DNA of 64,000 nt, taken from NCBI GenBank assembly GCA_937928595.1, contig CALGJV010000013.1:62001-126000 (forward strand). Direction: 5' to 3'. The notes under the pieces are model-generated. The model did no database searches. It was given only the letters and a program-made list of their open reading frames with translations, and was not told the origin of the DNA. Positions 7,892 through 26,737 of this stretch are shown here, in pieces (position 1 is the first letter of the stretch; each line of letters starts with the position of its first letter). The stretch is from an uncultured Phycisphaerae bacterium (GTDB lineage Bacteria; Planctomycetota; Phycisphaerae; UBA1845; Fen-1342). A program made the position numbers and the translations under genes.

Positions 7892-9055
7892 TCACTCCAG
7901 CGCCCGAAACGCGACGACGGGCCGCAGCCGCGCCGCCAGCCAGACCGGCCACGCCGCCGCGATCAGCCCGACCGCCGCGGCGATGCCCACGGCCTGCGCG
8001 CAGACGGCCAGCCGCACGTCGAGCGACTGGATGAGCGGCACCGTGAAGCGGCGCAGCGGCGTGTAGGTGAACGCGTACCACGGCCCGAGCGCGCCGAGCG
8101 CCCCGGCGCTCACGCAGATCGCCAGGCTCTCGAACTGGATCAGCGCGAAGACGAGCGCGCGGCCGAAGCCGAGTGCCTTGAGCGCGGCGTACTCGGCCAG
8201 GCGGTCGCGGAAGTTCATGCTCATCGTGTTGGCGGCGGCGATAATGGCGACCACCACGGTCAGGGCCGAAAGGATCGTGAGGTTGCGCGGCAGGTCGAAC
8301 TGCTGCGCGATGAACTGGCTCATGAAGGCCTTCTCGTCCTGCGTGAGCGTCGGGTCGGGCGTGTTGGCGAAATGCGCGTCGATCGCCGTGCGGTAGAACT
8401 CGAGGTCGTCCGACGAGCGGCACTTGGCGAAGAAGAAGCTGACCAGCCCCTCGGGGTAGCCCTGCCGCTTGATCTCCTCCTCGAGGTAGTCGCCGCGACA
8501 GAACAGCGTGACCGGGTCGACCACGTCCTGGGCCGTCGAGACGACGTGGAACGGGATCGCCGAGTAGGGCGGGACCGACGCGCGGATGGTGATCCGGTCG
8601 CCCACGCGCCAGCCGAACTGCGCGGCCGTGCCGCGCCCCACGACGATGGCCTGCCGGTCGCGCTCCCACGCGGCGCGTTCGGCCGGATCGGTCAGGTACT
8701 CGGGAAACGTCGCGGGAAACGTGTCGGGGTCGGCGGCAAGCGTGGAGAGCGGCTGGGGCTTGTCCTCGACCTTGCCGCCGATCCAGCGCATGGCGCAGAC
8801 CGTGATGGGCCGGCTGTGGTCGAGGGCCTCGATTTTCCCGCGGTAGCCGGCCGGCAGGGGGTAGACGATGGACGATTTGTGGGTGATGGCCAGGCGGAGC
8901 TGGCGGGCGGAGTTGTCGAGAAAGCGGTTGATGCCGTCCACGACGGCCACCGAGAGCACGAAGATGGTGATCGGCAGGCCGACCGCCAGGCCCGTCATCA
9001 GGACACGCAGCGGGTTGCGCCAGATATTGCGGTGCAGGTAGCTCAGGATCAGCAT
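7892..9055 (-). CDS. ABC transporter permease, MacB/FtsX type (copy A2)
   Basis: A 387-aa permease starting MLILSYLHRNIWRNPLRVLM, then a first helix, a large periplasmic domain and three C-terminal helices (LTVVVAIIAAANTMSMNFRD; the coupling segment RLAEYAALKALGFGRALV follows). It pairs with the copy-B2 gene at 10304-11473: shared landmarks include MRWxGGxV, TLxADxDTxP, VARQYGWxVGDR-like and FANTPDxTxxxxExAFxxxF. The ATG at 9055 was chosen from the alignment with copy B2; the frame is open to 9445. It is separated from the next upstream gene by 23 bases. Confidence 0.86.
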   Translation of the reverse strand: MLILSYLHRNIWRNPLRVLMTGLAVGLPITIFVLSVAVVDGINRFLDNSARQLRLAITHKSSIVYPLPAGYRGKIEALDHSRPITVCAMRWIGGKVEDKPQPLSTLAADPDTFPATFPEYLTDPAERAAWERDRQAIVVGRGTAAQFGWRVGDRITIRASVPPYSAIPFHVVSTAQDVVDPVTLFCRGDYLEEEIKRQGYPEGLVSFFFAKCRSSDDLEFYRTAIDAHFANTPDPTLTQDEKAFMSQFIAQQFDLPRNLTILSALTVVVAIIAAANTMSMNFRDRLAEYAALKALGFGRALVFALIQFESLAICVSAGALGALGPWYAFTYTPLRRFTVPLIQSLDVRLAVCAQAVGIAAAVGLIAAAWPVWLAARLRPVVAFRALE

Positions 9056-9078
9056 GGCACGGTTCGCACGACCTCCGC

Positions 9079-10266
9079 TCACCCCTCGCGCAGCGCGCTG
9101 ACCGCCTGCACGCGCGCCGCCCGCCACGCCGGCACGAGCGCCCCCAGGGCTCCGACCAGCACGACGGCCGCCAGCGCGACCGCGGCGATCATCGGCGTCA
9201 AGCGGATCTCGAACGCCAGCGTCGTGAAGCTCGACGCCCCCAGCATGTCCTTGGTGCGGCCGACGAACTGGAGCCAGGCCAGACACAGTCCGCAGCCCAG
9301 CCCGCCGCCCAGCAGCGCCAGCAGCACGGCCTCGAGCACGAAACCCACCAGGATGCGCCCGCGGCCGAAGCCGATCGTCCGCAGCATGGCGATCTCGCGC
9401 GTGCGGCCGGCGACGGCCGAGAACATCGTGTTGGCGATCGAGCATACGGCCGCGACGCTCATGATCAGCACGAGGCCGGTCACGATCACGAGGTAGCCGC
9501 GCACGAGCCGCAGCTGCTCGTGCCAGTAGGCGGCCTCGGTCTTGGCCGTGAGCTGGATGGCCGGCCCCTCGATCTGCTCGATCACCTTCTGGGGGTCTTC
9601 GTCCGGTGCGACGCGCAGGGCGGCCGACGAATAGGCGTTGCGGCTGTAGGCGTTCATCAGCGACGGGAGGTAGCCCCAGATCTCGCTTTCGAGCGGCCCG
9701 CCGTCGGCGGTGAAATAGCCGACCACCCGGTAGCCGCGGTCGTTGCCGAAGCCGAGGTTCACCACGTCGCCGAGCCGGAGGCCGGCGAACTGCTCCGCCG
9801 CCTTGACGCCGACGATGATCTCCTGCGCGCCGGTCGCGAACACCGGGCCCTGGAGCCGCACGTTGCGGTGCACGGCGAAGGCCCGCTCGGGGTCGACGCC
9901 GCGCACGGCGACGTTGGCGGTCGTGCGACCGGCGTCGCGCTTGCGGGGCAGGGCGACCTGCACGGTCATCTCGGGGCTGACCAGCGGCCGGCCGGTCTGC
10001 GGGTCGCGCGCCACGCCGGTGACCTGGCTGAGCTTGTTGAACTCGGCGGGCGGCAGCGCGCTGGTGCCTTCGGAGGTCGAGCCGCGGCGGATGACGATGA
10101 TCTTGTGGGTGTCGCTGGCGACGGCCAGCGAGCCGCGGAGGGCGGCGGCGAAGCCCAGGATCCAGCCGAGCAATCCGACGACGGCGGCCACGACGAGGAT
10201 CGTCAGCGTGGTCGTCGTGGGCCGCACGAAGACGTTGCGCCAGTGGTACACCAGCGGCAGAGCCAT
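9079..10266 (-). CDS. ABC transporter permease, MacB/FtsX type (copy B1)
   Basis: A 395-aa permease with the same plan as copy A1: N-terminal helix (TTTLTILVVAAVVGLLGWIL), an extracytoplasmic domain with TANVAVRGVDPERAFAVHRN that aligns with ANVAVRGVDDIAFALH of copy A1, then three helices with TREIAMLRTIGFGRGRILVG as the ATPase-coupling segment. It lies third in the operon, 37 bases after copy B2. Paired permeases of different subfamily in tandem suggest that each transporter is a heterodimer. Confidence 0.88.
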   Translation of the reverse strand: MALPLVYHWRNVFVRPTTTTLTILVVAAVVGLLGWILGFAAALRGSLAVASDTHKIIVIRRGSTSEGTSALPPAEFNKLSQVTGVARDPQTGRPLVSPEMTVQVALPRKRDAGRTTANVAVRGVDPERAFAVHRNVRLQGPVFATGAQEIIVGVKAAEQFAGLRLGDVVNLGFGNDRGYRVVGYFTADGGPLESEIWGYLPSLMNAYSRNAYSSAALRVAPDEDPQKVIEQIEGPAIQLTAKTEAAYWHEQLRLVRGYLVIVTGLVLIMSVAAVCSIANTMFSAVAGRTREIAMLRTIGFGRGRILVGFVLEAVLLALLGGGLGCGLCLAWLQFVGRTKDMLGASSFTTLAFEIRLTPMIAAVALAAVVLVGALGALVPAWRAARVQAVSALREG

Positions 10267-10303
10267 CCGGTCCGATCTCCTGCGCCGGCGCGGGCCGGCC
10301 GAG

Positions 10304-11473
10304 TCAGGCGACGCGCCGCAGCGCGTCGGTCGTTCGCAGGCGCAGCGCCTGCCAGGCCGGCCAGAAGCCGGCCGCGATGCCCACGATCAGGCCGATCGAC
10401 AGCGAGCCGAGCACCGCCAGCCACGACAGCTCGGGCGGGCTGAACGCGCCCCAGCGCAGGTGGTCGGGCGGAATCAGCGTCAGGCCCGCGACGATCGGCA
10501 GAATCCCCAGGGCCGAGCCGAGCAGCGCCAGCAGGACGCTCTCGGAGAGCACGATCAGGAACACGCGGCGCGCCGAGAACCCGAGCGCCTTGAACACGGC
10601 GAGTTCGCGGATGCGCTCGCGGAAGCTCATCATCATGGTGTTGCCGGCGACCAGCGCGACGATGATCACGACGACCGTGGCCATGGCCTGCGCCAGGCTG
10701 GGCAGGTCGCCCACGGCCTGCACGAACCCGGCCACGAAGGCGTTCTCGTCCTCGCTGCGGGTCTCGTCGGGCGTATTGGCAAACAGGGCGTCGATCTCCT
10801 GCTGGAGGGAGCGGAGCGCGGCCGCGTCGACGCACTTGACCCAGAAGATGCTGCACCCGGTGCCGACCTGGCCCTCGCGCTCGAACGCGTCGAGCAGGTA
10901 GTCGCGGCGGAAGTAGAACGTCATCGGGAACGGCGATTCGTCCCAGATGCGGATCAGGCGGAATTCCAGTTGCCGATACGGTGGGATCGTGCTCTCGAGC
11001 ACGACACGGTCCCCGACCTTCCAGCCGTACTGCCGCGCGACGCCGCCGGCGACGATCGCCGCGCGGCGCTCGCGCTGCCACTCGGTGATCTCGGCCTCGG
11101 TCAGCCCGATGTCGCTGTAGACGATCGGCAGCGTGTCGGCGTCGGCGGCCAGGCTCTGGAGCGTCTGCTGCGTCCCGGGCACACGGCCGCCGAACCAGCG
11201 CATGCCGCAGACCGCCCGCAGGCGCGTGCGCTGCGGGTCGAGCTCCTCGATCTTCCGGCGGTGGCCATCGGGCAGGAAGTTGGTCAGCGACACGCGGTGG
11301 TGCACCCCCAGCCGGAGCTCCTGCTCCAGAGCGGCGCTGGTCTTGACGAACCCGACCACCAGCGACAGCGCCAGCACGAACACGGCCATCGGCAGGGCGA
11401 ACGCCACGGCCGTCAGGCCGGTGCGGAGCCGGTTGCGCCTCAGGTTCTGAAGCAGGACATAGGACAGCGTCAC
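10304..11473 (-). CDS. ABC transporter permease, MacB/FtsX type (copy B2)
   Basis: A 389-aa permease beginning [20 protein letters not shown], followed by the first membrane helix, a periplasmic domain of about 220 aa and three C-terminal helices ([20 protein letters not shown]; coupling segment [19 protein letters not shown]). It is the first permease after the ATPase, 13 bases downstream of its stop. The family link to copy A2 at 7892-9055 is plain across the whole length. Confidence 0.88.
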
Positions 11474-11486
11474 CGAAGCTCCTCGC

Positions 11487-12209
<723 letters not shown>

Positions 12210-12376: not shown

Positions 12377-13606
12377 CTATCGCTCGCGCCCCCACAGCTC
12401 CGCGAGCTTCAGCAGGACACGGACCGCGGACTCCATCTCCTCGAGGCAGGCGAACTCGAGCGGCGAGTGGTAGTTGTGCATGCCGGCCGAGAGGTTCGGC
12501 GTGGGCAGGCCCAGCTCGCTGAGCCGCGAACCGTCCGTGCCGCCCCGGATCGACGTGAACTCGGGCTTCAGCCCGACGGCTTCGTACGCCTGCGCCGCCA
12601 GCCCCACGGCCCGCGGCTCGCGTGCCAGGTGCTCCCGCATGTTGCGGTACTGCTTGCGCACGTCGACCGCGATGCGCGCCCGCGGGTGCTCGGCCGCCAG
12701 CGTGTCGGCGACGCTGCGCAGCAGCGCGGCCTGTGTCTCGAGCTCCGCCGTCTCGAAGCTCCGGAGCAGGATCTTGAGCTTCACCTCGGGCACGCCGCCC
12801 TCGACCAGGTAGGGGTGCAGGAATCCGTCGCGGCCGCGGGTGGTCTCCGGCGCGAGCCGGTGCCACGGCAGACGCTCGAGAAACTGGCCGGCGAGGCGAA
12901 TGGCGTTGACCATCTTGCCGCAGGCCAGGCCGGGGTGGATGTTCACGCCGGTGATCGTCACGGTCGCGAGGTCGGCCGAGAACGTCTCCTGCTCGATCTG
13001 GCCCGCCCCCTCGCCGTCGAGGGTGTAGGCGCAGACGGCGCCGAGGCCCGGCACGTCGAGCTTGTCGACGCCGCGGCCGATCTCCTCGTCGCAGGTGAAG
13101 ACGATGCGGATGGGCCCGTGCTTGCGGTTCCTGTCGCGCAGCAGCTCCGCGGCGGCGGTCATGATGACGGCCACGCCGGCCTTGTCGTCGGCACCGAGCA
13201 GCGTGGTGCCGTCGGTCGTGATGAGCGTCCGGCCCTTCAGTTCGGCCAGGATGGGCGTGTCCGCGACGCGAATGACCTTCGACGGGTCGCCGGGCAGCGG
13301 GATGTCGCCGCCGGCGTAGTGGCGGATCACCTGCGGGTGGACGTCGCGGCCGCTGTACTCGGGCGAGGTATCGAGGTGCGCGAGCCAGGCGATCGTGGGG
13401 GCGCCCGGCGCGGTGCCGGGAAGCGTAGCGGTGACGATGCCGTCGGCGCTGATCGCGACGTCGGCGGCCCCGAGCGCCCGGAGCTCGTCGGCCAGCAGCC
13501 GCCCGAGCGTGAGCTGGCCCGGGGAACTGGGGTACTGCGGCGCGTCCTCGACGGCCGTCGTCTCGATCTGCACGTAGCGGCAGAAGCGGTCCAGCAGCGT
13601 GTCCAC
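12377..13606 (-). CDS. pepT: Tripeptide aminopeptidase (peptidase T, M20B)
   Basis: A zinc aminopeptidase of 409 aa that removes the N-terminal residue from tripeptides in the cytoplasm. Metal and catalytic motifs are present: AHLDTSP (His and Asp, about 78-84), TTLLGADDKAGVAV (about 138-151), FTCDEEIGRG (about 175-184), YTLDGE (about 199) and the late zinc His in GMHNYHSPLEF (about 376-386). GTG at 13606 is used because the PepT family starts MxxLLxRFxRYVxxxT, exactly VDTLLDRFCRYVQIETT here. It lies 26 bases after the stop of a POT-family peptide transporter, so uptake and hydrolysis are probably cotranscribed. Confidence 0.95.
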   Translation of the reverse strand: MDTLLDRFCRYVQIETTAVEDAPQYPSSPGQLTLGRLLADELRALGAADVAISADGIVTATLPGTAPGAPTIAWLAHLDTSPEYSGRDVHPQVIRHYAGGDIPLPGDPSKVIRVADTPILAELKGRTLITTDGTTLLGADDKAGVAVIMTAAAELLRDRNRKHGPIRIVFTCDEEIGRGVDKLDVPGLGAVCAYTLDGEGAGQIEQETFSADLATVTITGVNIHPGLACGKMVNAIRLAGQFLERLPWHRLAPETTRGRDGFLHPYLVEGGVPEVKLKILLRSFETAELETQAALLRSVADTLAAEHPRARIAVDVRKQYRNMREHLAREPRAVGLAAQAYEAVGLKPEFTSIRGGTDGSRLSELGLPTPNLSAGMHNYHSPLEFACLEEMESAVRVLLKLAELWGRER

Positions 13607-13632
13607 GTTCGTCTCCGCGCGCGGCGGGCGGG

Positions 13633-15423
13633 CTACCGCGTGCCGCCGCCGGTGAGGTTGTGCGCCGCCGACCGGGGCAGCGCGAGGCGGTTGTACAAGA
13701 GGAAGATCGCGGCCGTCAGCACCATGATGACGCCGAACGCGGCCCACATCAGGTCGGGCCGTTGCATGTCGCGGGCGAGCTTGCCGTAGAGCTGGCCCGA
13801 GAGGATGCCGCCGAAGAGATTGCCCAGCGCGACGGCGACGAAGTAATAGCCCATGTAGAGCGCGACCTTGTCGCGCGGGGCGATGCGGCCGACGTACTCC
13901 TGGCTCGTCGGACTCGACATCATCTCGCCGAACGAGAAGATCAGGATGCCGGCGCAGACGATCCAGACGGAGCCGCCGGGCCCGGTCAGGCCCTGGTCGC
14001 CGGCCAGCGCCGACAGCCCGATCCCCACGGCGGCCACGAGCATCCCGATGACCATCGACGTGAACTGGTGGAAACGCGAGATCAGGTACGAGACGAGGAC
14101 CTGGAAACAGACGATGCCCAGCGCGTTGAGGTTGACGATGAACTCGGGGTTGAACTGCCGACCGCGGGCGATGGCCCGGTCGGCCACGTTGTCGGGGGTG
14201 GCGTCGGCGGCGCTGAACAGCTCGCGCAGCTCGGCCGGTCGCAGCCGCACCTTGTTTTGGAGCAGGTCGCGCGCCGCGGCCTCGAAGACCGCGTCGTCGC
14301 GGTCGGGGCTCGCCAGCAGCTCGGTCATCTTCTTGACGATTTCGGCCCGTTCGTCCTTGTTGATCGTCGCGACCCGCTCGGCGGCCCCGGGTCCCAGAAC
14401 GCGCTCGGCGGTGTGGATCAGCGGCCGGGTCTCGGTGAAGTCGCGGATGTACTCGGGCATGGTCAGGAAGATCTGGTTGAACGCGGTCCAGAAGCCCGAC
14501 AGGATCAGGAGGAAGAGCGCGAAGCGCCAGTTGCTGCAATGCATCCGCTGGAGCAGCGCGGGGCGGGCGGGCGTGCCCGGGGGGGCGGGGCGGCCGCTGC
14601 CGGCCGGCAGCACCGCATCCCACAGGAAGTTCAGCGCCAGCCAGGCCGCGACGAAGATGGCGCAGCGTGTCCAGGTGAACCACGGGTATTCGAGGTTCGC
14701 GACCATCAACGCGACGAGCGTCACGAGCACGGTCAGGCCGAAGCGCGGGTTGCCGATCACCTCGTACGTGTTCGCGAGGACCTGCTTGAGCGAGCGCCGC
14801 GTCGCGGAACCGGCTTCGGAGGTCGGCTCGCGGTAGAACAGCGACACGATGATGAGGTTCACCACCGCCCAGCCCGAAGACGCCAGGAACACGTAGTCCC
14901 ACGACAGGCCGCGCACCACGCCCGCCACGATCGGCCCCACGAACCCGCCGATGTTCACCATCATGTAGAAGATGCCGAAACCCATCCGCGAGTTCGCCTC
15001 ACCCGTCACCCGGGCCACCGTGCCGACGACCACGGGTTTGAAGATCGCGGCCGCGACCGCGACGCAGAAGAACGCGGCCAGGAACCCGGGCATGCTCTTG
15101 AACTGGCCCAGGGCGTAGTAAAAGACGGCCATGCCGACGTAGGCCAGCAGGAACATCTTCTTGTAGCCGTAGCGGTCGGCCAGCGCGCCCGTCAGCACCG
15201 GCATGAGATACAGCAGGAACGGGATGATGGCCTGGATGGCGCCGCGCTGCTCGGAGGTGAAGCCCAGGCCGCCGGTCTCGCGGGGGCCCGTGATGTAGAG
15301 CGACGACACGGCGAAGAAGCCGTACCACGCCATCCGTTCGAAGATCTCCATCGTGTTGGCGACCCAGAACGTGGCGGGGAAGCTGCGAATTTGCGCGAGA
15401 AAGCCGGGCTGGGGTGCGCTCAC
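13633..15423 (-). CDS. POT/PTR-family proton-coupled oligopeptide transporter
   Basis: A 596-aa major-facilitator transporter. The proton-coupling ExxER motif is at residues 26-30 (MEIFERMAWYGFF), and the family signature FxxFYxxxNxG-like block appears as FGIFYMMVNIGGFVGPIVAG (about 150-169). Twelve or more membrane helices are predictable. A hydrophilic insert of about 90 aa (roughly 345-435: ERVLGPGAAERVATINKDER...LFSAADATPDNV) interrupts the second half; a similar extracytoplasmic or inter-bundle domain occurs in some bacterial peptide transporters. It directly precedes pepT and follows the exported tricorn protease gene, pointing to di/tripeptide uptake as its job. Confidence 0.92.
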   Translation of the reverse strand: MSAPQPGFLAQIRSFPATFWVANTMEIFERMAWYGFFAVSSLYITGPRETGGLGFTSEQRGAIQAIIPFLLYLMPVLTGALADRYGYKKMFLLAYVGMAVFYYALGQFKSMPGFLAAFFCVAVAAAIFKPVVVGTVARVTGEANSRMGFGIFYMMVNIGGFVGPIVAGVVRGLSWDYVFLASSGWAVVNLIIVSLFYREPTSEAGSATRRSLKQVLANTYEVIGNPRFGLTVLVTLVALMVANLEYPWFTWTRCAIFVAAWLALNFLWDAVLPAGSGRPAPPGTPARPALLQRMHCSNWRFALFLLILSGFWTAFNQIFLTMPEYIRDFTETRPLIHTAERVLGPGAAERVATINKDERAEIVKKMTELLASPDRDDAVFEAAARDLLQNKVRLRPAELRELFSAADATPDNVADRAIARGRQFNPEFIVNLNALGIVCFQVLVSYLISRFHQFTSMVIGMLVAAVGIGLSALAGDQGLTGPGGSVWIVCAGILIFSFGEMMSSPTSQEYVGRIAPRDKVALYMGYYFVAVALGNLFGGILSGQLYGKLARDMQRPDLMWAAFGVIMVLTAAIFLLYNRLALPRSAAHNLTGGGTR

Positions 15424-15563
15424 CGCGGTGCTCTCCGTCGGAAGGGACCGAAACGCCGGCGCGCGCAGCCGACAGGACCGCGCCGGTACGCGGACAAGCT
15501 ACTCGCAAGGCCGGGCCGCGGCAAACGGCCGCCGTGGAGGCGCCGAGCGCCCACGCCGCCGCG

Positions 15564-18500
15564 CTACCGATCCTCCTCCGGAATGCCCATCCCGCGGCGG
15601 TCCGGCGCCTTCGGCCGCTGCGGCGGCGTGTACGGCGCGCGCGCGATCTCGGCCAGCATGAGCTCGATGCCCTTGTCGAGCTGCGGGTCGCCGCCGCTCA
15701 CCATCAGCGACGGATCGTCCACGACCTCGATGTCCGGGTCGACGCCGTGGCCCTCGACGCCCCAGGTGCCGTCGGTCTTGTAAAACCCGAACGTCGGCAC
15801 GGTGATGCCGGCGCCGTCGATCAGGCCCGGGTTGCCGCTGATGCCGACCAGCCCGCCCCACGTGCGCATGCCGATGAGCGGGCCCAGCTTGCTCTGCCGG
15901 AAGTAGTAGGGGAACGCATCGCCGCCCGAGCCCGCCAACCCGTTGATCAGCATGCACTTCGGGCCCTGGTGGGCGTCGTCCGGGTTCGGCCAGTCGCGGC
16001 CGTCGCGCCGCGCCCAGTAGTTCGTGATGGGGCGGTTGAGCAGCTCGATGAAGCGGTTCGGAATCTGCCCCCCGCCGTTCCAGCGCTCGTCGATGATCAG
16101 CGCGGCCTTGTCGCGCTGGCCGTAGAACTGGCGGAACAGCTCGTTCTGGCCGTTCACGCCGGTGTCGGGCACATGGATGTAGCCGACGCGGCCGCCGGTC
16201 TTGTGCTCGACGTAGGCGCGGTTGCGCTCCACCCAGTCGCGATAGCGCAGGCCGCCCTCGTCGCCGAGCAGCGTCACGATGAGTTCGCGCTGGCCGGTCT
16301 TGGTCGGCTTCCCGGAGTCCTGCTCGTCGCCCTTGTGCTCGGCCGGCGTTGTGTCCGTCGGCCGGGTGGCCGCGTCAGCGGGCTGCGACTCGGCCGCCGC
16401 CGTCTGTGTCGTCGGATCGGCGAGCGTGGGCTGGTCGCTGACGGTCAGCGTGACGGTACGGCCGGCGAGGCCCTGGAACGCGGCCCACGGGTCGCGGGTC
16501 GCGTCCACCGGCACGCCGTTGACGGCCAGCAAGTAGTCGCCGACCTGGACGTTCACGCCCGGCTGGCCGAGCGGCCCGCGGGCGTCGAGGTCCCACGGGG
16601 CGCCGCCGAGGATGCGGGCGATGCGGTACGCCCCGCGGTCGAGCTCGAAGTCGACGCCGAGCAGGCCGACCGACACGCTGGGCTCGTCGCCGGTGTCGTT
16701 GCCGAAGTAGTACGCGTGCCCGATGTTGAGCTCGCTGATCATCTCGCGGATCAGGAAACCCACGTCGGCCCGCGACACGCAGTCGTCGAGCATGGCGGCG
16801 TACTGGTCGCGGATCGCCGGCCAGTCCACGCCGTGCATGTTCGCGACGTAGAAGTAGTCCCGCTGGATGCGCCAGGCGTCGAGGAAGAGCTGGCGCCACT
16901 CTTCGCGCGGGTGGATGACCACGGCCAGGTCGGACAGCGGGACCGACTTGCTCATGTTCTGGCCGGGGGCCGCGTCGACGATGGCGAACGTGTTGCCCTG
17001 CCGGGCGAGCAGCTTCTTGCCGTCGGCCGTCAGGCGGAACTCGCCCACGCCGTCGAGCACGGTCTTCTCGGTCTTCTCCTCGTCGCCCAGATCGAGGAGC
17101 TTGATGCTCGGCGCGCCGCCGCCCGCGCCGGGCTGCCGCACGTACAGCAGCTTGCCCTCGTGGTTGACGGCCAGGTGCGCGAAGGCACCATGTCCGACGG
17201 GGATCTGGATGGCGCGGCGCTCGAAGCCCTCCAGGTCGATCTGGAGCTTCTTGGGCTCGTCCTTCCGGGCCTCCGCCTGCGCTGCGCCGTCGGCCGCCGG
17301 CGCGGACGCGGTCGCGGGCGCGGAGTCCTGGGCCCGCAGGCCGGCGCTGCGGGTGTCGTCGTCGCCTTCGTCATCCTCGCCGTCGTCGTCCGCCGGCGGC
17401 GGCTGCGGTGCGGGCGCGTCGCCCGCGCCGTCCGGCTGGTCGCCGGGGGCGTCTTTCTTCTCGTCCTTCTTCTCCTCTTTCTTCTCCGGGCCGGGTTCCT
17501 CGTCCGACTGGGGCGCCCACGGCGACGGCAGGTCCGCCCGCAACGGCACCACGACCAGCACGTCCGTGCGGGTGTAGACGAACGTGCTGCCGATGTCCTC
17601 GTAGATCGGATCGGCGAAGCGCGCGTTGGTCGCGTAGAACAGGTAGTCGCCCTTGCGGTCGAACGCGGGCCACGACACGTTGAACATCCCGCTCGTGACC
17701 TGGTGCTTCTCCCCGGTCGGCACGTGGTACAGCCAGAGCGCCTGCTGGTGGTTGTCGCCGCCGCGCGGATACGCCAGCCACGTCGAATCGTGCGACCAGG
17801 ACACGGTCGGCAGGTTCGCCCACGGGTCGGCGTCGATCAGTTTCACCGTGCCCCGCGGCTCCTCCGCCCCCGGCTCGCGGGCCGGCCACTTCTCCGGGAA
17901 CGTGTACAGGTACAGCATGCCCGCCTTGTCGCCGAAGACAATGTGCTTCGAATCCGGCGACCAGTGCGGCGCGAACCGGAACGCCTGGCCGTCGAACGTC
18001 AGCCGGTGCGGCGCGGTCTTGCCGTCCGCCGCCCGCACGTACAGCTCGTACTCGCCGGTTTCGTCAGAGAAGTACGCGATCCAGCGGCCGTCGGGGCTCC
18101 ACGCCGGGTCGCGCTCGGCCACGCCGCTGGTGCGGCTCAGGTTGCGGCTCGAGCCCTTGCGGGCGGGCACGCTCCACACGTCGCCACGGGCTTCGAGCAC
18201 CGCCCGCTGGCCGGTCGGCGAGACGTCGTAGTTCTCGATGCGGCTCTGGACGTCGACCCGCTGCGGGCGGATGTCCGGCCGATCGCCCGGCACGCTGATC
18301 TCGACCGCGCGACTGGTCCGGGTCGCCAGGTCGAGCAGGTACAGATCCGCGCCGAGCTGGAACACGATCTCGCCGCCGCCGCTGGGTCCGGGGCCGATCG
18401 CGGGCCACTTCACGTCGAACTCGGTGAAGCGCGTCACCTGCTCGCGGCGGCCGGTCGCCGGGTCGTAGACCCAGATGTTGCCGCGATGCTCCGGGCCGCC

Positions 18501-19193
18501 GTCGCTGAGGTAGTAAAGCTTCTCGCCGTGCCACATCGGCTGGCTGTCGTTGCCCTCCCAGTCCGTGGCCTTCCGGGCGGTGGGGTCCTTGAGGTTGAAC
18601 AGCCAGATGTCCGGGGCCATGCCGCCGCGATAGCGCTTCCAGGTCGACGTGTCGATCGTGTGCGGGATGTACGCCAGCCACGTCCCGTCCGGGCTGATCG
18701 CCCCCGTCGCGCCGTAGGGGACTGGCAGCTTCTCCGGCAAGCCGCCGGTCGGCGCGACCGTGAACAGGTGACTCTGCCGCCCGAGGCCCTGATAACCCCG
18801 GACGAAGAACAGCAGCCGCCCGTCGGGCGTCCAGTCGCACAGGACCTCGGCCGCCGGGTGGTGCGTGACCCGCACCGGCACGCCGCCGGTCACGGGGATC
18901 GTGTACAGGTCGCGGTTGCCGTCGTAGTTGCCGACGAAGGCGATGGTCCGGCCGTCGGGGCTGAAGCGCGGAAAAGCCTCGCCGCCGGGCGGGCTGGCCA
19001 GCGGGGTGGCGAGGCCGCCGTCGCGCGATACGAGCCAGAGGTCGTTCTGGTAGGCGAAAACGATCTGCGTCGCACTGACGTCGGGGAAACGCATCATGCC
19101 GGCGTGCGGCTTGCGGTCCGCGTGGGCGGTCGCCACGGCCGCCAGGCCGGCGACCAGCATGGGGAGTACACGGAGCGCGGGGCTCAGGAGCAT
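15564..19193 (-). CDS. Exported tricorn protease homologue (S41-type)
   Basis: A 1209-aa tricorn-core peptidase. A signal peptide (PALRVLPMLVAGLAAVATAHA) indicates export. Two beta-propellers follow: WD40/TolB-like blades such as FPRFSPDGRTIAFVG (about 77-91) and RDPAWSPDGRWIAYFSDE. Then come a PDZ domain (GVNVQVGDYLLAVNGVPVDA, about 880) and the S41 catalytic part. The nucleophile equivalent is Ser at about 1089 in LAGSGGDAFPYYFR, and EGHGVDPDIEV supplies late active-site residues. At about 560-650 there is an unusual Lys/Glu/Asp/Ala/Pro-rich insert (EKKEEKKDEKKD) between domains. The ATG at 19193 has GAAAGGA 6 bases upstream. It is followed by the POT transporter and pepT. Confidence 0.92.
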   Translation of the reverse strand: MLLSPALRVLPMLVAGLAAVATAHADRKPHAGMMRFPDVSATQIVFAYQNDLWLVSRDGGLATPLASPPGGEAFPRFSPDGRTIAFVGNYDGNRDLYTIPVTGGVPVRVTHHPAAEVLCDWTPDGRLLFFVRGYQGLGRQSHLFTVAPTGGLPEKLPVPYGATGAISPDGTWLAYIPHTIDTSTWKRYRGGMAPDIWLFNLKDPTARKATDWEGNDSQPMWHGEKLYYLSDGGPEHRGNIWVYDPATGRREQVTRFTEFDVKWPAIGPGPSGGGEIVFQLGADLYLLDLATRTSRAVEISVPGDRPDIRPQRVDVQSRIENYDVSPTGQRAVLEARGDVWSVPARKGSSRNLSRTSGVAERDPAWSPDGRWIAYFSDETGEYELYVRAADGKTAPHRLTFDGQAFRFAPHWSPDSKHIVFGDKAGMLYLYTFPEKWPAREPGAEEPRGTVKLIDADPWANLPTVSWSHDSTWLAYPRGGDNHQQALWLYHVPTGEKHQVTSGMFNVSWPAFDRKGDYLFYATNARFADPIYEDIGSTFVYTRTDVLVVVPLRADLPSPWAPQSDEEPGPEKKEEKKDEKKDAPGDQPDGAGDAPAPQPPPADDDGEDDEGDDDTRSAGLRAQDSAPATASAPAADGAAQAEARKDEPKKLQIDLEGFERRAIQIPVGHGAFAHLAVNHEGKLLYVRQPGAGGGAPSIKLLDLGDEEKTEKTVLDGVGEFRLTADGKKLLARQGNTFAIVDAAPGQNMSKSVPLSDLAVVIHPREEWRQLFLDAWRIQRDYFYVANMHGVDWPAIRDQYAAMLDDCVSRADVGFLIREMISELNIGHAYYFGNDTGDEPSVSVGLLGVDFELDRGAYRIARILGGAPWDLDARGPLGQPGVNVQVGDYLLAVNGVPVDATRDPWAAFQGLAGRTVTLTVSDQPTLADPTTQTAAAESQPADAATRPTDTTPAEHKGDEQDSGKPTKTGQRELIVTLLGDEGGLRYRDWVERNRAYVEHKTGGRVGYIHVPDTGVNGQNELFRQFYGQRDKAALIIDERWNGGGQIPNRFIELLNRPITNYWARRDGRDWPNPDDAHQGPKCMLINGLAGSGGDAFPYYFRQSKLGPLIGMRTWGGLVGISGNPGLIDGAGITVPTFGFYKTDGTWGVEGHGVDPDIEVVDDPSLMVSGGDPQLDKGIELMLAEIARAPYTPPQRPKAPDRRGMGIPEEDR

Positions 19194-24335: not shown

Positions 24336-25565
24336 TCAGCCGCGCACGGCCGCGCCTTCGCGCAGCTGCGCCAGATCGCCCGCCGCCACCTCGTCGCCGG
24401 CATTCAGGCCGCTGACGACCTCCGCGGACGCGGCATCCCGCGCGCCGAGCTGGACGGACACACGGCGCCAGCGCCCGTCGCGGGCGACGTAGACGTGGGT
24501 GGTGCCGTCCGCGTCCGTCACCACGGACGAGAGCGGGACGCGCAGCGCCGTCGCCTCCGCCGCGGCTTCCCACGGCGGCTCCGTGAAGAACTGCACCTGC
24601 GCCGCCCCCTCCACTCGCAGGTCGGCATCCGGCTCGAAGATGCGGACTTTCACCTGCACGGTGGCCTTGGCGTAGTTCGCGCCGGGGTCGATCCACAGGA
24701 CCTCACCGCGATACCGGCGGTCCTTGTGGGCGTCGGGCACCACGAGGCACGGCATGCCGCGTCGCAGCCGCCGGATGTCCAGCTCGCTGACGTCGACCTC
24801 CACCCGCAGCTTCGACATGTCCGCGATCGCTCCGAACTGCGCGTTGGCCATCGCGCCGCGGCCGCCCTCGGCCGCGACGAAATCGCCCACCTCGACGTTG
24901 CGCTCGAGAATGACGCCGTTGATCGGCGCGACCACCTGACAGTCGCGCAGCAGTTTCTCGGCGAATGCCAGCAGCGCCTCGTCCGCCGCGACCTGCGCAC
25001 GGGCCTCGTCGAGGGCCCGCCGGGCGTCGGCAAACTCGATGTCGGACGCCTGGCTCTGGGCGTGCAGCCGACGCACGCGATCGAAGTTGACCTCCTGAAA
25101 CGCGAGATTCGCGCGGGCCTTCTCAAGCGTCGCCGCGGCCTCGTCGCGCCGCGCGCGATACGTGTCCGACTCGATCTCCGCCAGGACTTGTCCCCGCTCC
25201 ACCGTGTCGCCCTGCTCGAAATGCAGTGCCACCACCTGCCCCGAGACCTTCGTCTGCACTTCCACGAGATGGTCGGAAACGATCTTTCCGGTCGCCGTCA
25301 GCACGGGCGTGGCGGCCGCGATCGGCGCCGCGACCACGCGCACGCTCCTCACCGCCGCGGCGGGGGCCGCCTTGGACCGGCCGGCCCAGGCAGCGAACCG
25401 GTCGCCGAACCGCTCCCAGCCGAAATACCCCGCCAGCCCGAGCACGCACATCGCGAGCACCGCCGTCCACGGCCCCCGTCGCGGGCGGGCCGACGGTCCG
25501 GGCCGGCGGTCGCGCGGAATGCTGAGCGTTCGAAGCTGGTCCCGCAGTTGGTCGGAATCCGCCAT
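24336..25565 (-). CDS. Periplasmic adaptor (HlyD/MacA-type membrane-fusion protein)
   Basis: A 409-aa adaptor with an N-terminal membrane anchor (GPWTAVLAMCVLGLAGYFGW, about 31-50). The lipoyl half-motifs VSGQVVALHFEQGDTVERGQ (about 105-124) and VVAPINGVILERNVEVGDFV (about 213-232) flank an alpha-hairpin coiled coil (about 135-200), then beta-barrel and membrane-proximal domains. Adaptors of this kind link inner-membrane ABC or RND transporters to outer-membrane channels. No transporter gene adjoins it. The ABC permeases at 6.6-11.5 kb lack an adaptor and are candidate partners. It is separated from the murI operon by 98 bases and preceded upstream by a perfect 12-bp inverted repeat. Confidence 0.85.
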   Translation of the reverse strand: MADSDQLRDQLRTLSIPRDRRPGPSARPRRGPWTAVLAMCVLGLAGYFGWERFGDRFAAWAGRSKAAPAAAVRSVRVVAAPIAAATPVLTATGKIVSDHLVEVQTKVSGQVVALHFEQGDTVERGQVLAEIESDTYRARRDEAAATLEKARANLAFQEVNFDRVRRLHAQSQASDIEFADARRALDEARAQVAADEALLAFAEKLLRDCQVVAPINGVILERNVEVGDFVAAEGGRGAMANAQFGAIADMSKLRVEVDVSELDIRRLRRGMPCLVVPDAHKDRRYRGEVLWIDPGANYAKATVQVKVRIFEPDADLRVEGAAQVQFFTEPPWEAAAEATALRVPLSSVVTDADGTTHVYVARDGRWRRVSVQLGARDAASAEVVSGLNAGDEVAAGDLAQLREGAAVRG

Positions 25566-25704: not shown

Positions 25705-26565
25705 CTACGGGCAGGTCGCGCCGATGCGGGCCACGAACGCGTCGATGTCGTCGAAGTTCACCGAGCCGTCGTTGTTGCAGTCGCCGTTCAGCCACGGGCA
25801 GTTCGGGTACGGCCAGCCGGCACCACCCGGGTAGCTCAGGGCTTCGACGAACCGGTCGATGTCATCGAAATCCACCAAGCCGCTGCAATCCATGTCGCCC
25901 GCGCAGGGCGTCGGACCCGTCGCGACCGTGAAGCTGATCTGCGCACCGGCCGTGTTGACCGTCGCCTGCGCCACCGGCGAGTAAGCCGGCGGCGTGCCAA
26001 TCGACGTGAGGACGTTCGCCAGCCCGTTGGTCAGGCGGAACGTGTATGTCCCCGGCGTCGAGGGCGCGAGGAACGAGCCGCTGAGCACGTGCTGCGGCTG
26101 GGCGCCCTGGCCGATCCCGCCGTTCACCGTGAAGTCCTGGCCGATGCCGGTCGGGCCGGCCGCGCCGAACGTGTTCTGCGCGCCGCCGATCTGGATCAGG
26201 TTCTTCTGGCCCGCCGTGCCGCGCTGCACGCCGATGTAGCCGGTCGTCGCGCTGCCCTCGCCGGGGTTGCTGATACCCAGCGGACGGCTGAAATCGTCCA
26301 TCGTCGTGTCGATGCTCGCAACGTCCCCCGGCGGAATGTCGAACTTAGCCGGGTTGGCCGCATCCTGCACCAGGTCGCACGCGATCAGGGCCAGGCCCTG
26401 ATTGTCGCCGGTCGACACGGCCACCCGGATCGTCCAGTCAATCGGGGTGCCCGGCTGGACGGTCTGTCCGTTCTTGGTCGACTGCAGAGACAGCGTGACC
26501 GTCGCGGCCTGCGCCACCACGCACAGAGCAACGAGGATCGCCAAGGTGCTTAGAGTTCGTCGCAT
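25705..26565 (-). CDS. Secreted protein with C-terminal dockerin-type repeats
   Basis: A 286-aa secreted protein: signal peptide (LSTLAILVALCVVAQAA), a single beta-sandwich-like domain (about 22-215) rich in Gly/Thr/Asn, and two EF-hand-type calcium loops at the C-terminus, DMDCSGLVDFDDIDRFVEAL (about 226-245) and DCNNDGSVNFDDIDAFVARI (about 263-282). The WPYPNCPWLNGDC linker and paired loops are characteristic of planctomycete dockerin-like tails. These may sort or tether proteins at the surface; true cohesin partners are not known here. The ATG follows GGAG; promoter at 26709-26737, terminator directly after the stop. Divergent from the large glycoside hydrolase. Confidence 0.85.
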   Translation of the reverse strand: MRRTLSTLAILVALCVVAQAATVTLSLQSTKNGQTVQPGTPIDWTIRVAVSTGDNQGLALIACDLVQDAANPAKFDIPPGDVASIDTTMDDFSRPLGISNPGEGSATTGYIGVQRGTAGQKNLIQIGGAQNTFGAAGPTGIGQDFTVNGGIGQGAQPQHVLSGSFLAPSTPGTYTFRLTNGLANVLTSIGTPPAYSPVAQATVNTAGAQISFTVATGPTPCAGDMDCSGLVDFDDIDRFVEALSYPGGAGWPYPNCPWLNGDCNNDGSVNFDDIDAFVARIGATCP

Positions 26566-26708
26566 GCTCCATTCTCCCACTTTGGTTCCGTCGGAACGAA
26601 CAGCCTTCCGCCTTGCTTCTGAGCGGCCCGCACGGGGACCGCACACGACCTGAGATGCCGCCGCTCGAACCGGCGTCTGTCCGCGACGCCGGCCCGAGAT
26701 TATGCGTG

Positions 26709-26737
26709 AGTATAACGCCGCTTCCAACCCCACGCAA
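26709..26737 (-). promoter_or_regulatory. Promoter of the dockerin-repeat gene
   Basis: On the minus strand TTGCGT (26737-26732), a 17-base spacer, and TATACT (26714-26709). The leader to the ATG at 26565 would be about 137 bases. The spacing and hexamers match those found before rpsO. Confidence 0.6.

What the first reader, a model, noticed from the sequence alone, without database searches (positions are those of the whole stretch)
12377..19193. Peptide-use module: exported tricorn, POT transporter and PepT
Three same-strand genes encode successive steps: a signal-peptide-bearing tricorn peptidase, a proton-coupled peptide transporter with the ExxER motif, and a tripeptide aminopeptidase. 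PepT starts 26 bases after the transporter stop. Tricorn is usually described as a large cytoplasmic processor in archaea; here an export signal would place it outside the cytoplasm, feeding a transporter. With PutA and GSIII nearby it sketches a peptide-scavenging system.
Basis: partly seen in the sequence, partly recalled or inferred. Interest (0 to 1): 0.5.

Follow-up and report, generated by a model that had tools for sequence, protein, structure and literature searches.

The report
Peptide-use gene cluster with exported tricorn
In a Phycisphaerae-type bacterium a gene for a secreted tricorn peptidase lies beside genes for a peptide transporter and a cell-internal tripeptidase; relatives often cluster the same kinds of genes but with a different tricorn copy, so this looks like a locally re-assembled protein-feeding kit rather than a new system.

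Summary
On the minus strand lie a tricorn peptidase with a clear signal peptide (19193-15564), a POT-type transporter (15423-13633) and PepT (13606-12377, 26 bases after the transporter stop).

(1) Export is not special: a simple rule finds signal-like N-termini in 66 of 80 named tricorns from many phyla, against 0 of 74 PepT controls.

(2) Clustering by kind is real: of 74 PepT loci in the same order, 35 have a POT, OPT or related MFS transporter within 3 kb and 8 have an exported tricorn.

(3) That tricorn is a different paralogue (TRI2). None of 19 loci of the window's own type (TRI1) has such a neighbour in the stretch fetched, and no TRI2 was found in the window genome. TRI1 seems to sit in TRI2's usual seat.

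(4) PutA and GSIII lie 15.7 and 20.4 kb away on the other strand.

(5) New here: this transporter subfamily has Asn or Gln for the TM7 coupling glutamate and a 93-368-residue insert in the TM7-TM8 outer loop; the long form is predicted all-helical. Such outer domains were reported absent from bacterial POTs.

Function is inferred, not shown.

The parts
15564..19193 (-). Tricorn peptidase, TRI1 paralogue, 1209 aa
   Evidence: Pfam domains; catalytic Ser, His and Glu aligned to 1n6d; tree
19119..19193 (-). Signal peptide of the tricorn (25 codons; cleavage after residue 23 or 25)
   Evidence: Rule-based scan with negative control
13633..15423 (-). POT-A transporter, 596 aa, GTG start
   Evidence: PTR2 and MFS_1; fold search; ExxER
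14161..14439 (-). Insert of 93 residues in the TM7-TM8 outer loop of POT-A (short form)
14476..14478 (-). Asn316 codon of POT-A, in place of the TM7 glutamate of most POTs
12377..13606 (-). PepT, tripeptide aminopeptidase, 409 aa, GTG start

Best explanation
This is a local gene set for using external protein or peptides. Step 1 (inferred from the signal peptide): the tricorn is exported to the periplasm and cuts peptides there. Step 2 (inferred from family): the POT-A transporter carries small peptides across the inner membrane. Step 3 (inferred from family): PepT in the cytoplasm splits tripeptides. The set is one version of a mix-and-match island that recurs around PepT in this order, built from PepT, OPT, POT or MFS transporters, a second M20 peptidase and an exported tricorn. 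In the window genome the tricorn seat is held by TRI1, which stood alone in the relatives examined, while TRI2, the usual island tricorn, was not found in this genome. Shown: the genes, the signal-like N-terminus and the recurrence of the kinds of genes. Inferred: localisation, substrate, direction of transport, co-expression and the history of the swap.
For: Three complete genes with conserved catalytic residues in the tricorn. Signal-like N-terminus in the window tricorn, in 15 of 18 TRI1, 14 of 17 TRI2 and 66 of 80 named tricorns, against 0 of 74 PepT. Of 74 PepT loci, one per genome, of the same order (2 further PepT genomes, G268 and G238, were not fetched because their PepT is in fragments), within 3 kb: any POT/OPT/MFS relative 35, POT with ExxER 16, OPT 17, MFS relatives without ExxER 22, TRI2 8, TRI1 1 (a remnant). 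Rough chance of a POT that near is 1-3% (assuming 5-15 copies in 4.5 Mb). Comparison: 0 of 19 TRI1 loci have any of these (Fisher p about 4e-5 at 3 kb; genomes are related and 4 of the 19 have under 3 kb on one side). POT-A orthologues lie in the same stretch as PepT in 4, as TRI2 in 4 and as M20 in 4 of 18 loci of the order. Co-directional TRI2-PepT pairs occur in two genomes of the window's own family (L048, L088).
Against: TRI1 itself is not linked to these genes in any of the 19 relatives examined, so its place here may be chance. No promoter or terminator evidence for one transcript; the tricorn-POT gap is 140 bases. POT-A lacks the TM7 glutamate. The tricorn-POT or tricorn-PepT link is absent from 80 named tricorn loci across phyla (0 POT, OPT or PepT; 1 M20; 58 of the 80 loci are at least 12 kb). 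POT-A in two genomes of another class has no tricorn, PepT, OPT or M20 nearby. In 39 of 74 PepT loci no transporter lies within 3 kb, although only 59 of 74 have 3 kb on both sides.
Confidence: 0.6

Rival explanations
1. Chance neighbour: POT-A and PepT form a real pair, but the tricorn happens to lie next to them in this genome and does general periplasmic proteolysis, as it would anywhere else.
For: 0 of 19 TRI1 loci have a POT, OPT, PepT or M20 neighbour in the stretch fetched; 140-base gap; TRI1 is much more widespread than POT-A in the order.
Against: The arrangement joins the same three kinds of gene that cluster in relatives with TRI2, all three run in one direction, and no TRI2 was found in this genome.
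Confidence: 0.28
2. POT-A is not an ordinary proton-coupled di/tripeptide importer but a POT relative with other coupling or another substrate, so the module does not work as peptide digestion, import and trimming.
For: TM7 Glu is Asn or Gln in 18 of 18 rows; score under the TIGR00924 cut-off (73.1 against 130.2); unusual outer insert.
Against: ExxER, TM4 Lys and TM10 Glu are kept in every row that covers them; PTR2 is over cut-off; PepTSo2 has Gln at the same place and binds a peptide (PMC4331665, passages); 4 of 18 relatives' POT-A loci also hold PepT.
Confidence: 0.2
3. The tricorn serves envelope upkeep or processing of the cell's own exported peptides rather than feeding.
For: TRI1 is common in the order and stood alone in the 19 relatives examined.
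Against: Here it lies beside PepT and a transporter; in relatives exported tricorns of clade TRI2 recur beside PepT (8 of 74).
Confidence: 0.15

Closest known systems
Tricorn protease of Thermoplasma acidophilum (PDB 1k32, 1n6d)
   Same: Domain families; catalytic Ser, His and Glu aligned (S965, H746, E1023 of 1n6d); E about 1e-77.
   Different: Has a signal peptide. Gly at the positions of Ser745 and Asp966. All 20 TRI1 rows have Gly at the Asp966 position; the 17 rows of clade TRI2 have Asn 11, Asp 4, Ser 1, Ala 1. That these four residues are catalytic or, for Asp966, favour basic P1 in the archaeal enzyme is recalled, not checked.
Bacterial POT/PTR2 transporters (YePEPT, PepTSo2, GkPOT)
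   Same: Fold by Foldseek, ExxER, TM4 Lys, TM10 Glu.
   Different: TM7 Glu replaced by Asn or Gln, and a 93-368-residue insert between TM7 and TM8.
Mammalian PepT1/PepT2 with a trypsin-binding extracellular domain (PMC4597091, passages)
   Same: A peptide transporter carrying an extra domain on the outer face.
   Different: There the domain is a pair of immunoglobulin-like folds (paper), between TM9 and TM10 (recalled); here it is helical and between TM7 and TM8. Docking of a protease here is untested.
Peptidase T (PDB 1fno, 1vix, 3ife)
   Same: Ordinary member, E 1.2e-100 to 1fno.
   Different: Nothing notable.

Membership tests
Tricorn peptidase | Propeller repeats, Tricorn_C1, PDZ_Tricorn and S41 core in one chain | tested here: met
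   Pfam, all four over cut-off
Tricorn peptidase | Catalytic Ser, His and Glu | tested here: met
   Aligned to 1k32/1n6d; the same in 45 of 45 rows
Tricorn peptidase | Hexameric or larger assembly (recalled) | not testable with these tools
   No complex prediction was run
Sec-exported protein | Signal peptide with AxA-like cleavage site | tested here: met
   Home-made rule with PepT as negative control; no trained predictor was available
POT/PTR2 transporter | PTR2 profile over cut-off and ExxER motif on TM1 | tested here: met
   40.8 bits against 27; E26, E29, R30
POT/PTR2 transporter | POT fold | tested here: met
   The first 36 Foldseek rows are POT-type peptide transporters; the model's mean pLDDT is only 66
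Proton coupling as in GkPOT/PepTSt | Acidic residue on TM7 (majority of PTR members, PMC4331665) | tested here: not met
   Asn316 in the window; Asn 17 and Gln 1 of 18 rows. Not defining for the whole family, since PepTSo2 has Gln, but it lowers the claim of ordinary proton coupling
oligopeptide:H+ symporter subfamily TIGR00924 | Score over curated cut-off | tested here: not met
   73.1 against 130.2
Peptidase T | Equivalog TIGR01882 over cut-off | tested here: met
   384.5 against 285.75
Conserved tricorn-POT-PepT gene set of the same orthologues | Same orthologous tricorn beside PepT or POT in relatives | tested here: not met
   0 of 19 TRI1 loci; paralogue TRI2 instead beside PepT in 8 of 74 loci, TRI1 only as a remnant in 1

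The most novel reading that the evidence does not exclude
POT-A is a bacterial peptide transporter with its own periplasmic helical domain that docks an exported tricorn (TRI2 in relatives, TRI1 here), so that peptides pass from protease to carrier. It would be a bacterial counterpart, with an unrelated domain, of trypsin docking on mammalian PepT1/PepT2. Hints only: POT-A shares an island with an exported tricorn in the window, L047, L148, L149 and L150, all short-insert forms (5 of 8 short against 0 of 8 long, p 0.026; 3 of 6 against 0 of 8, p 0.055, with one genus collapsed; a test made after seeing the data, on 16 of 19 POT-A genes, the 3 incomplete ones left out).
Probability: 0.07. Interest if true: 0.7.

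Novelty: new variant of a known kind. Interest (0 to 1): 0.36.

Why it matters
It gives a genome-based, testable route for protein use in this group of Planctomycetota. In other planctomycetes GFP and dextran were seen to reach the periplasm (PMC5394234, passages), which raises the question what digests protein there; an exported tricorn beside a peptide carrier is a candidate. It also corrects two ideas: that an exported tricorn is unusual, and that bacterial POTs carry no outer domain.

Tried and rejected
Rejected: export as the surprising feature, because signal-like N-termini are common in bacterial tricorns. Rejected: PutA and GSIII as part of the module, because they are 15.7 and 20.4 kb away on the other strand.

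Conserved flanks: of 12 other window genes between 6.6 and 26.7 kb used as queries, only an ABC ATPase (a very common type), an HlyD-like gene (24336-25565, in L049 and L081) and one weak match to 25705-26733 hit any of the relatives' loci; one of the 12 queries (the glutamate racemase region) was in the wrong frame, had 5 stops and tested nothing.

A correction of my own labels: transporters that I first called POTd and POTf lack ExxER and the TM4 Lys and are MFS relatives, not canonical POTs. The first count (POT 32 of 74 within 3 kb) includes them; ExxER POTs alone are 16 of 74. The window's own PepT was missed by the automatic labelling because of an overlapping longer frame; it is not part of the 74.

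Fold of the insert: Foldseek gave no match at E 0.001 or better. VIA-align rows (best Z 9.8, 76 residues aligned, rmsd 2.3, helical bundles, model residues about 58-135 only) mean no more than a common helical arrangement, and the rest of the domain was barely tested. Pfam found nothing over cut-off in 6 inserts.

Literature: ten searches. 'tricorn' + 'peptide transporter' + 'gene cluster' gave 0 papers; 'peptide transporter' + 'POT family' + 'bacterial' + 'periplasmic domain' gave 1 paper, on another MFS transporter (listing only). Absence is only within this library. Searches were swamped by Phaeodactylum tricornutum. Papers seen in passages only: PMC6411480, PMC7661554, PMC5394234, PMC4331665, PMC4597091; all others as listing.

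Full report
WHAT IS THERE. On the minus strand, in transcription order, are a tricorn peptidase (19193-15564, 1209 aa), a POT-type transporter (15423-13633, 596 aa, GTG start) and PepT (13606-12377, 409 aa, GTG start). The gaps are 140 and 26 bases. Upstream are a 455-aa protein without a Pfam match and a laccase-domain protein; downstream an ABC ATPase with FtsX/MacB permeases. G+C is even across the region. The window is G000:C13:62001-126000 of a 3.69-Mb genome in 46 contigs. G260, of the same order, is probably the record JAJDDV010000019.1, 'Phycisphaerae bacterium OFTM174': the contig length (17,215) and the place of the tricorn on it agree. The class name is therefore an inference from that record's title.

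PROTEINS. Tricorn: all four domain families are present. The catalytic Ser, His and Glu align with S965, H746 and E1023 of 1n6d; Ser745 and Asp966 are Gly here. Across 45 tricorns Ser, His and Glu do not vary. Transporter: PTR2 is over cut-off but modest; the first 36 Foldseek rows are POT structures. PepT is an ordinary peptidase T.

EXPORT. With a home-made rule (positive n-region, uncharged hydrophobic ten-mer, AxA-like site; the best of several possible start codons taken for every gene, control included) the window tricorn scores, as do 15 of 18 TRI1 (of 19 loci; one gave no N-terminal match), 14 of 17 TRI2 and 66 of 80 named tricorns; 4 of the 14 misses ran off the contig with no start in view. 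PepT scores in 0 of 74. Seven of 19 TRI1 relatives have a lipobox-like site; the window does not. Export is thus the common state of bacterial tricorns, and PMC7661554 (passage) already counts tricorn core protease among known extracellular peptidases.

GENE ORDER. In 114 genomes of the order (own included), PepT orthologues were found in the window genome and 76 others; 74 of those 76 loci were fetched, the two left out being fragments. Within 3 kb: any POT/OPT/MFS relative 35, ExxER POT 16, OPT 17, MFS relatives without ExxER 22, TRI2 8, second M20 2, TRI1 1. Flanks are complete to 3 kb on both sides in 59 of 74 and to 8 kb in 35, so the counts are lower bounds. The single TRI1 case (L108) is a remnant with residues 1-82 and 1080-1209 only. 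In 19 TRI1 loci, taken from the matches before their neighbours were seen, none of POT, OPT, MFS relatives, PepT or M20 lies in the stretch fetched; 15 of the 19 have 3 kb or more on both sides and 9 have 7 kb. Reading the printed, capped rows by eye, I found no other genome with a full TRI1 row near its PepT row. Outside the order, 80 named tricorn loci from Planctomycetota, Acidobacteria, Bacteroidetes, Verrucomicrobia and others show no POT, OPT or PepT and one M20; 58 of them are at least 12 kb long.

PARALOGUES. A tree of 45 tricorns separates TRI1 (20 rows, support 100, window included) from the island clade TRI2 (17 rows, support 100). All intact tricorns found in one stretch with PepT or POT-A in relatives (12 rows) are in TRI2; 5 TRI2 rows stand alone. 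The window genome's only other Tricorn_C1 match (G000:C24) is a distant long-branch sequence with no such neighbour, not TRI2 in the tree, although the tree warns about long branches. So the likeliest history is that TRI1 took, or came to lie in, the seat that TRI2 has elsewhere; the order of events is unknown. TRI1 has Gly at the Asp966 position in 20 of 20 rows; clade TRI2 has Asn 11, Asp 4, Ser 1, Ala 1 of 17, so cutting preference may differ (inference; the role of Asp966 is recalled).

TRANSPORTER. POT-A orthologues occur in 18 of 113 other genomes of the order and in 2 genomes of one genus of another class in a sample of 294 from the phylum; those two have none of the partner genes nearby. 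Of the 18 loci of the order, 14 hold at least one of PepT, M20, TRI2, OPT or another POT or MFS relative: PepT 4, TRI2 4, M20 4. The TM7 Glu that matters in GkPOT and PepTSt (PMC4331665, passages) is Asn or Gln in 18 of 18 rows. All 18 rows have a long TM7-TM8 segment (98-373 residues in the compared columns), against 27-32 in POTb, 17-39 in POTe, 17-18 in 5 of 6 POTc (174 in the other) and 10-13 in POTd; three of five POTf have 85-102. The long form (295 residues, L130) is predicted with confidence as an all-helical domain (pLDDT 86.8, pTM 0.79, 7 sequences). The window's short form is helical with moderate confidence inside a model of mean pLDDT 66. By POT topology this loop is on the outer face (inference: TM7-TM8 belong to the extracellular gate, PMC4331665). 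PMC4597091 (passages) states that the extracellular domain of mammalian PepT1/2 is completely absent from bacterial members; POT-A has an unrelated domain at another place, so the general idea needs correction.

MECHANISM. Best reading: exported tricorn cuts peptides in the periplasm, POT-A imports small peptides, PepT splits tripeptides inside. Shown: genes, signal-like N-terminus, recurrence of the kinds. Inferred: place, substrate, coupling, co-expression. PutA and GSIII are not linked to it.

VERDICT. A confirmed observation, a partly supported reading, and an ordinary pathway with one unusual carrier.

Noticed in passing
window 14161-14439 and L130:5821-6705: Inserted helical region in the TM7-TM8 loop of the POT-A transporter, 93-368 residues in 16 complete genes, no Pfam or PDB match of note.
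   Followed up: partly
L050-L053, L055, L057, L058, L061, L063: PepT-OPT-POT islands: PepT near an OPT oligopeptide transporter and one or more POT genes, a recurrent core without tricorn.
   Followed up: partly
L108:6061-6580: Tricorn remnant beside PepT with only the first 82 and last 130 residues left (or a mis-assembly).
   Followed up: no
G000:C22:3574-7291, C28, C12: The window genome has two tandem OPT transporters on contig C22 and further OPT matches on C28 and C12, none on the PepT contig.
   Followed up: no
window 7892-12209 (-): FtsX/MacB-type permease genes with an ABC ATPase directly downstream of PepT, likely a MacB-like ABC system.
   Followed up: no
L079, L080, L161-L165: Lipobox-like sites in the signal regions of 7 of 19 TRI1 relatives, suggesting membrane-tethered tricorns there.
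   Followed up: partly
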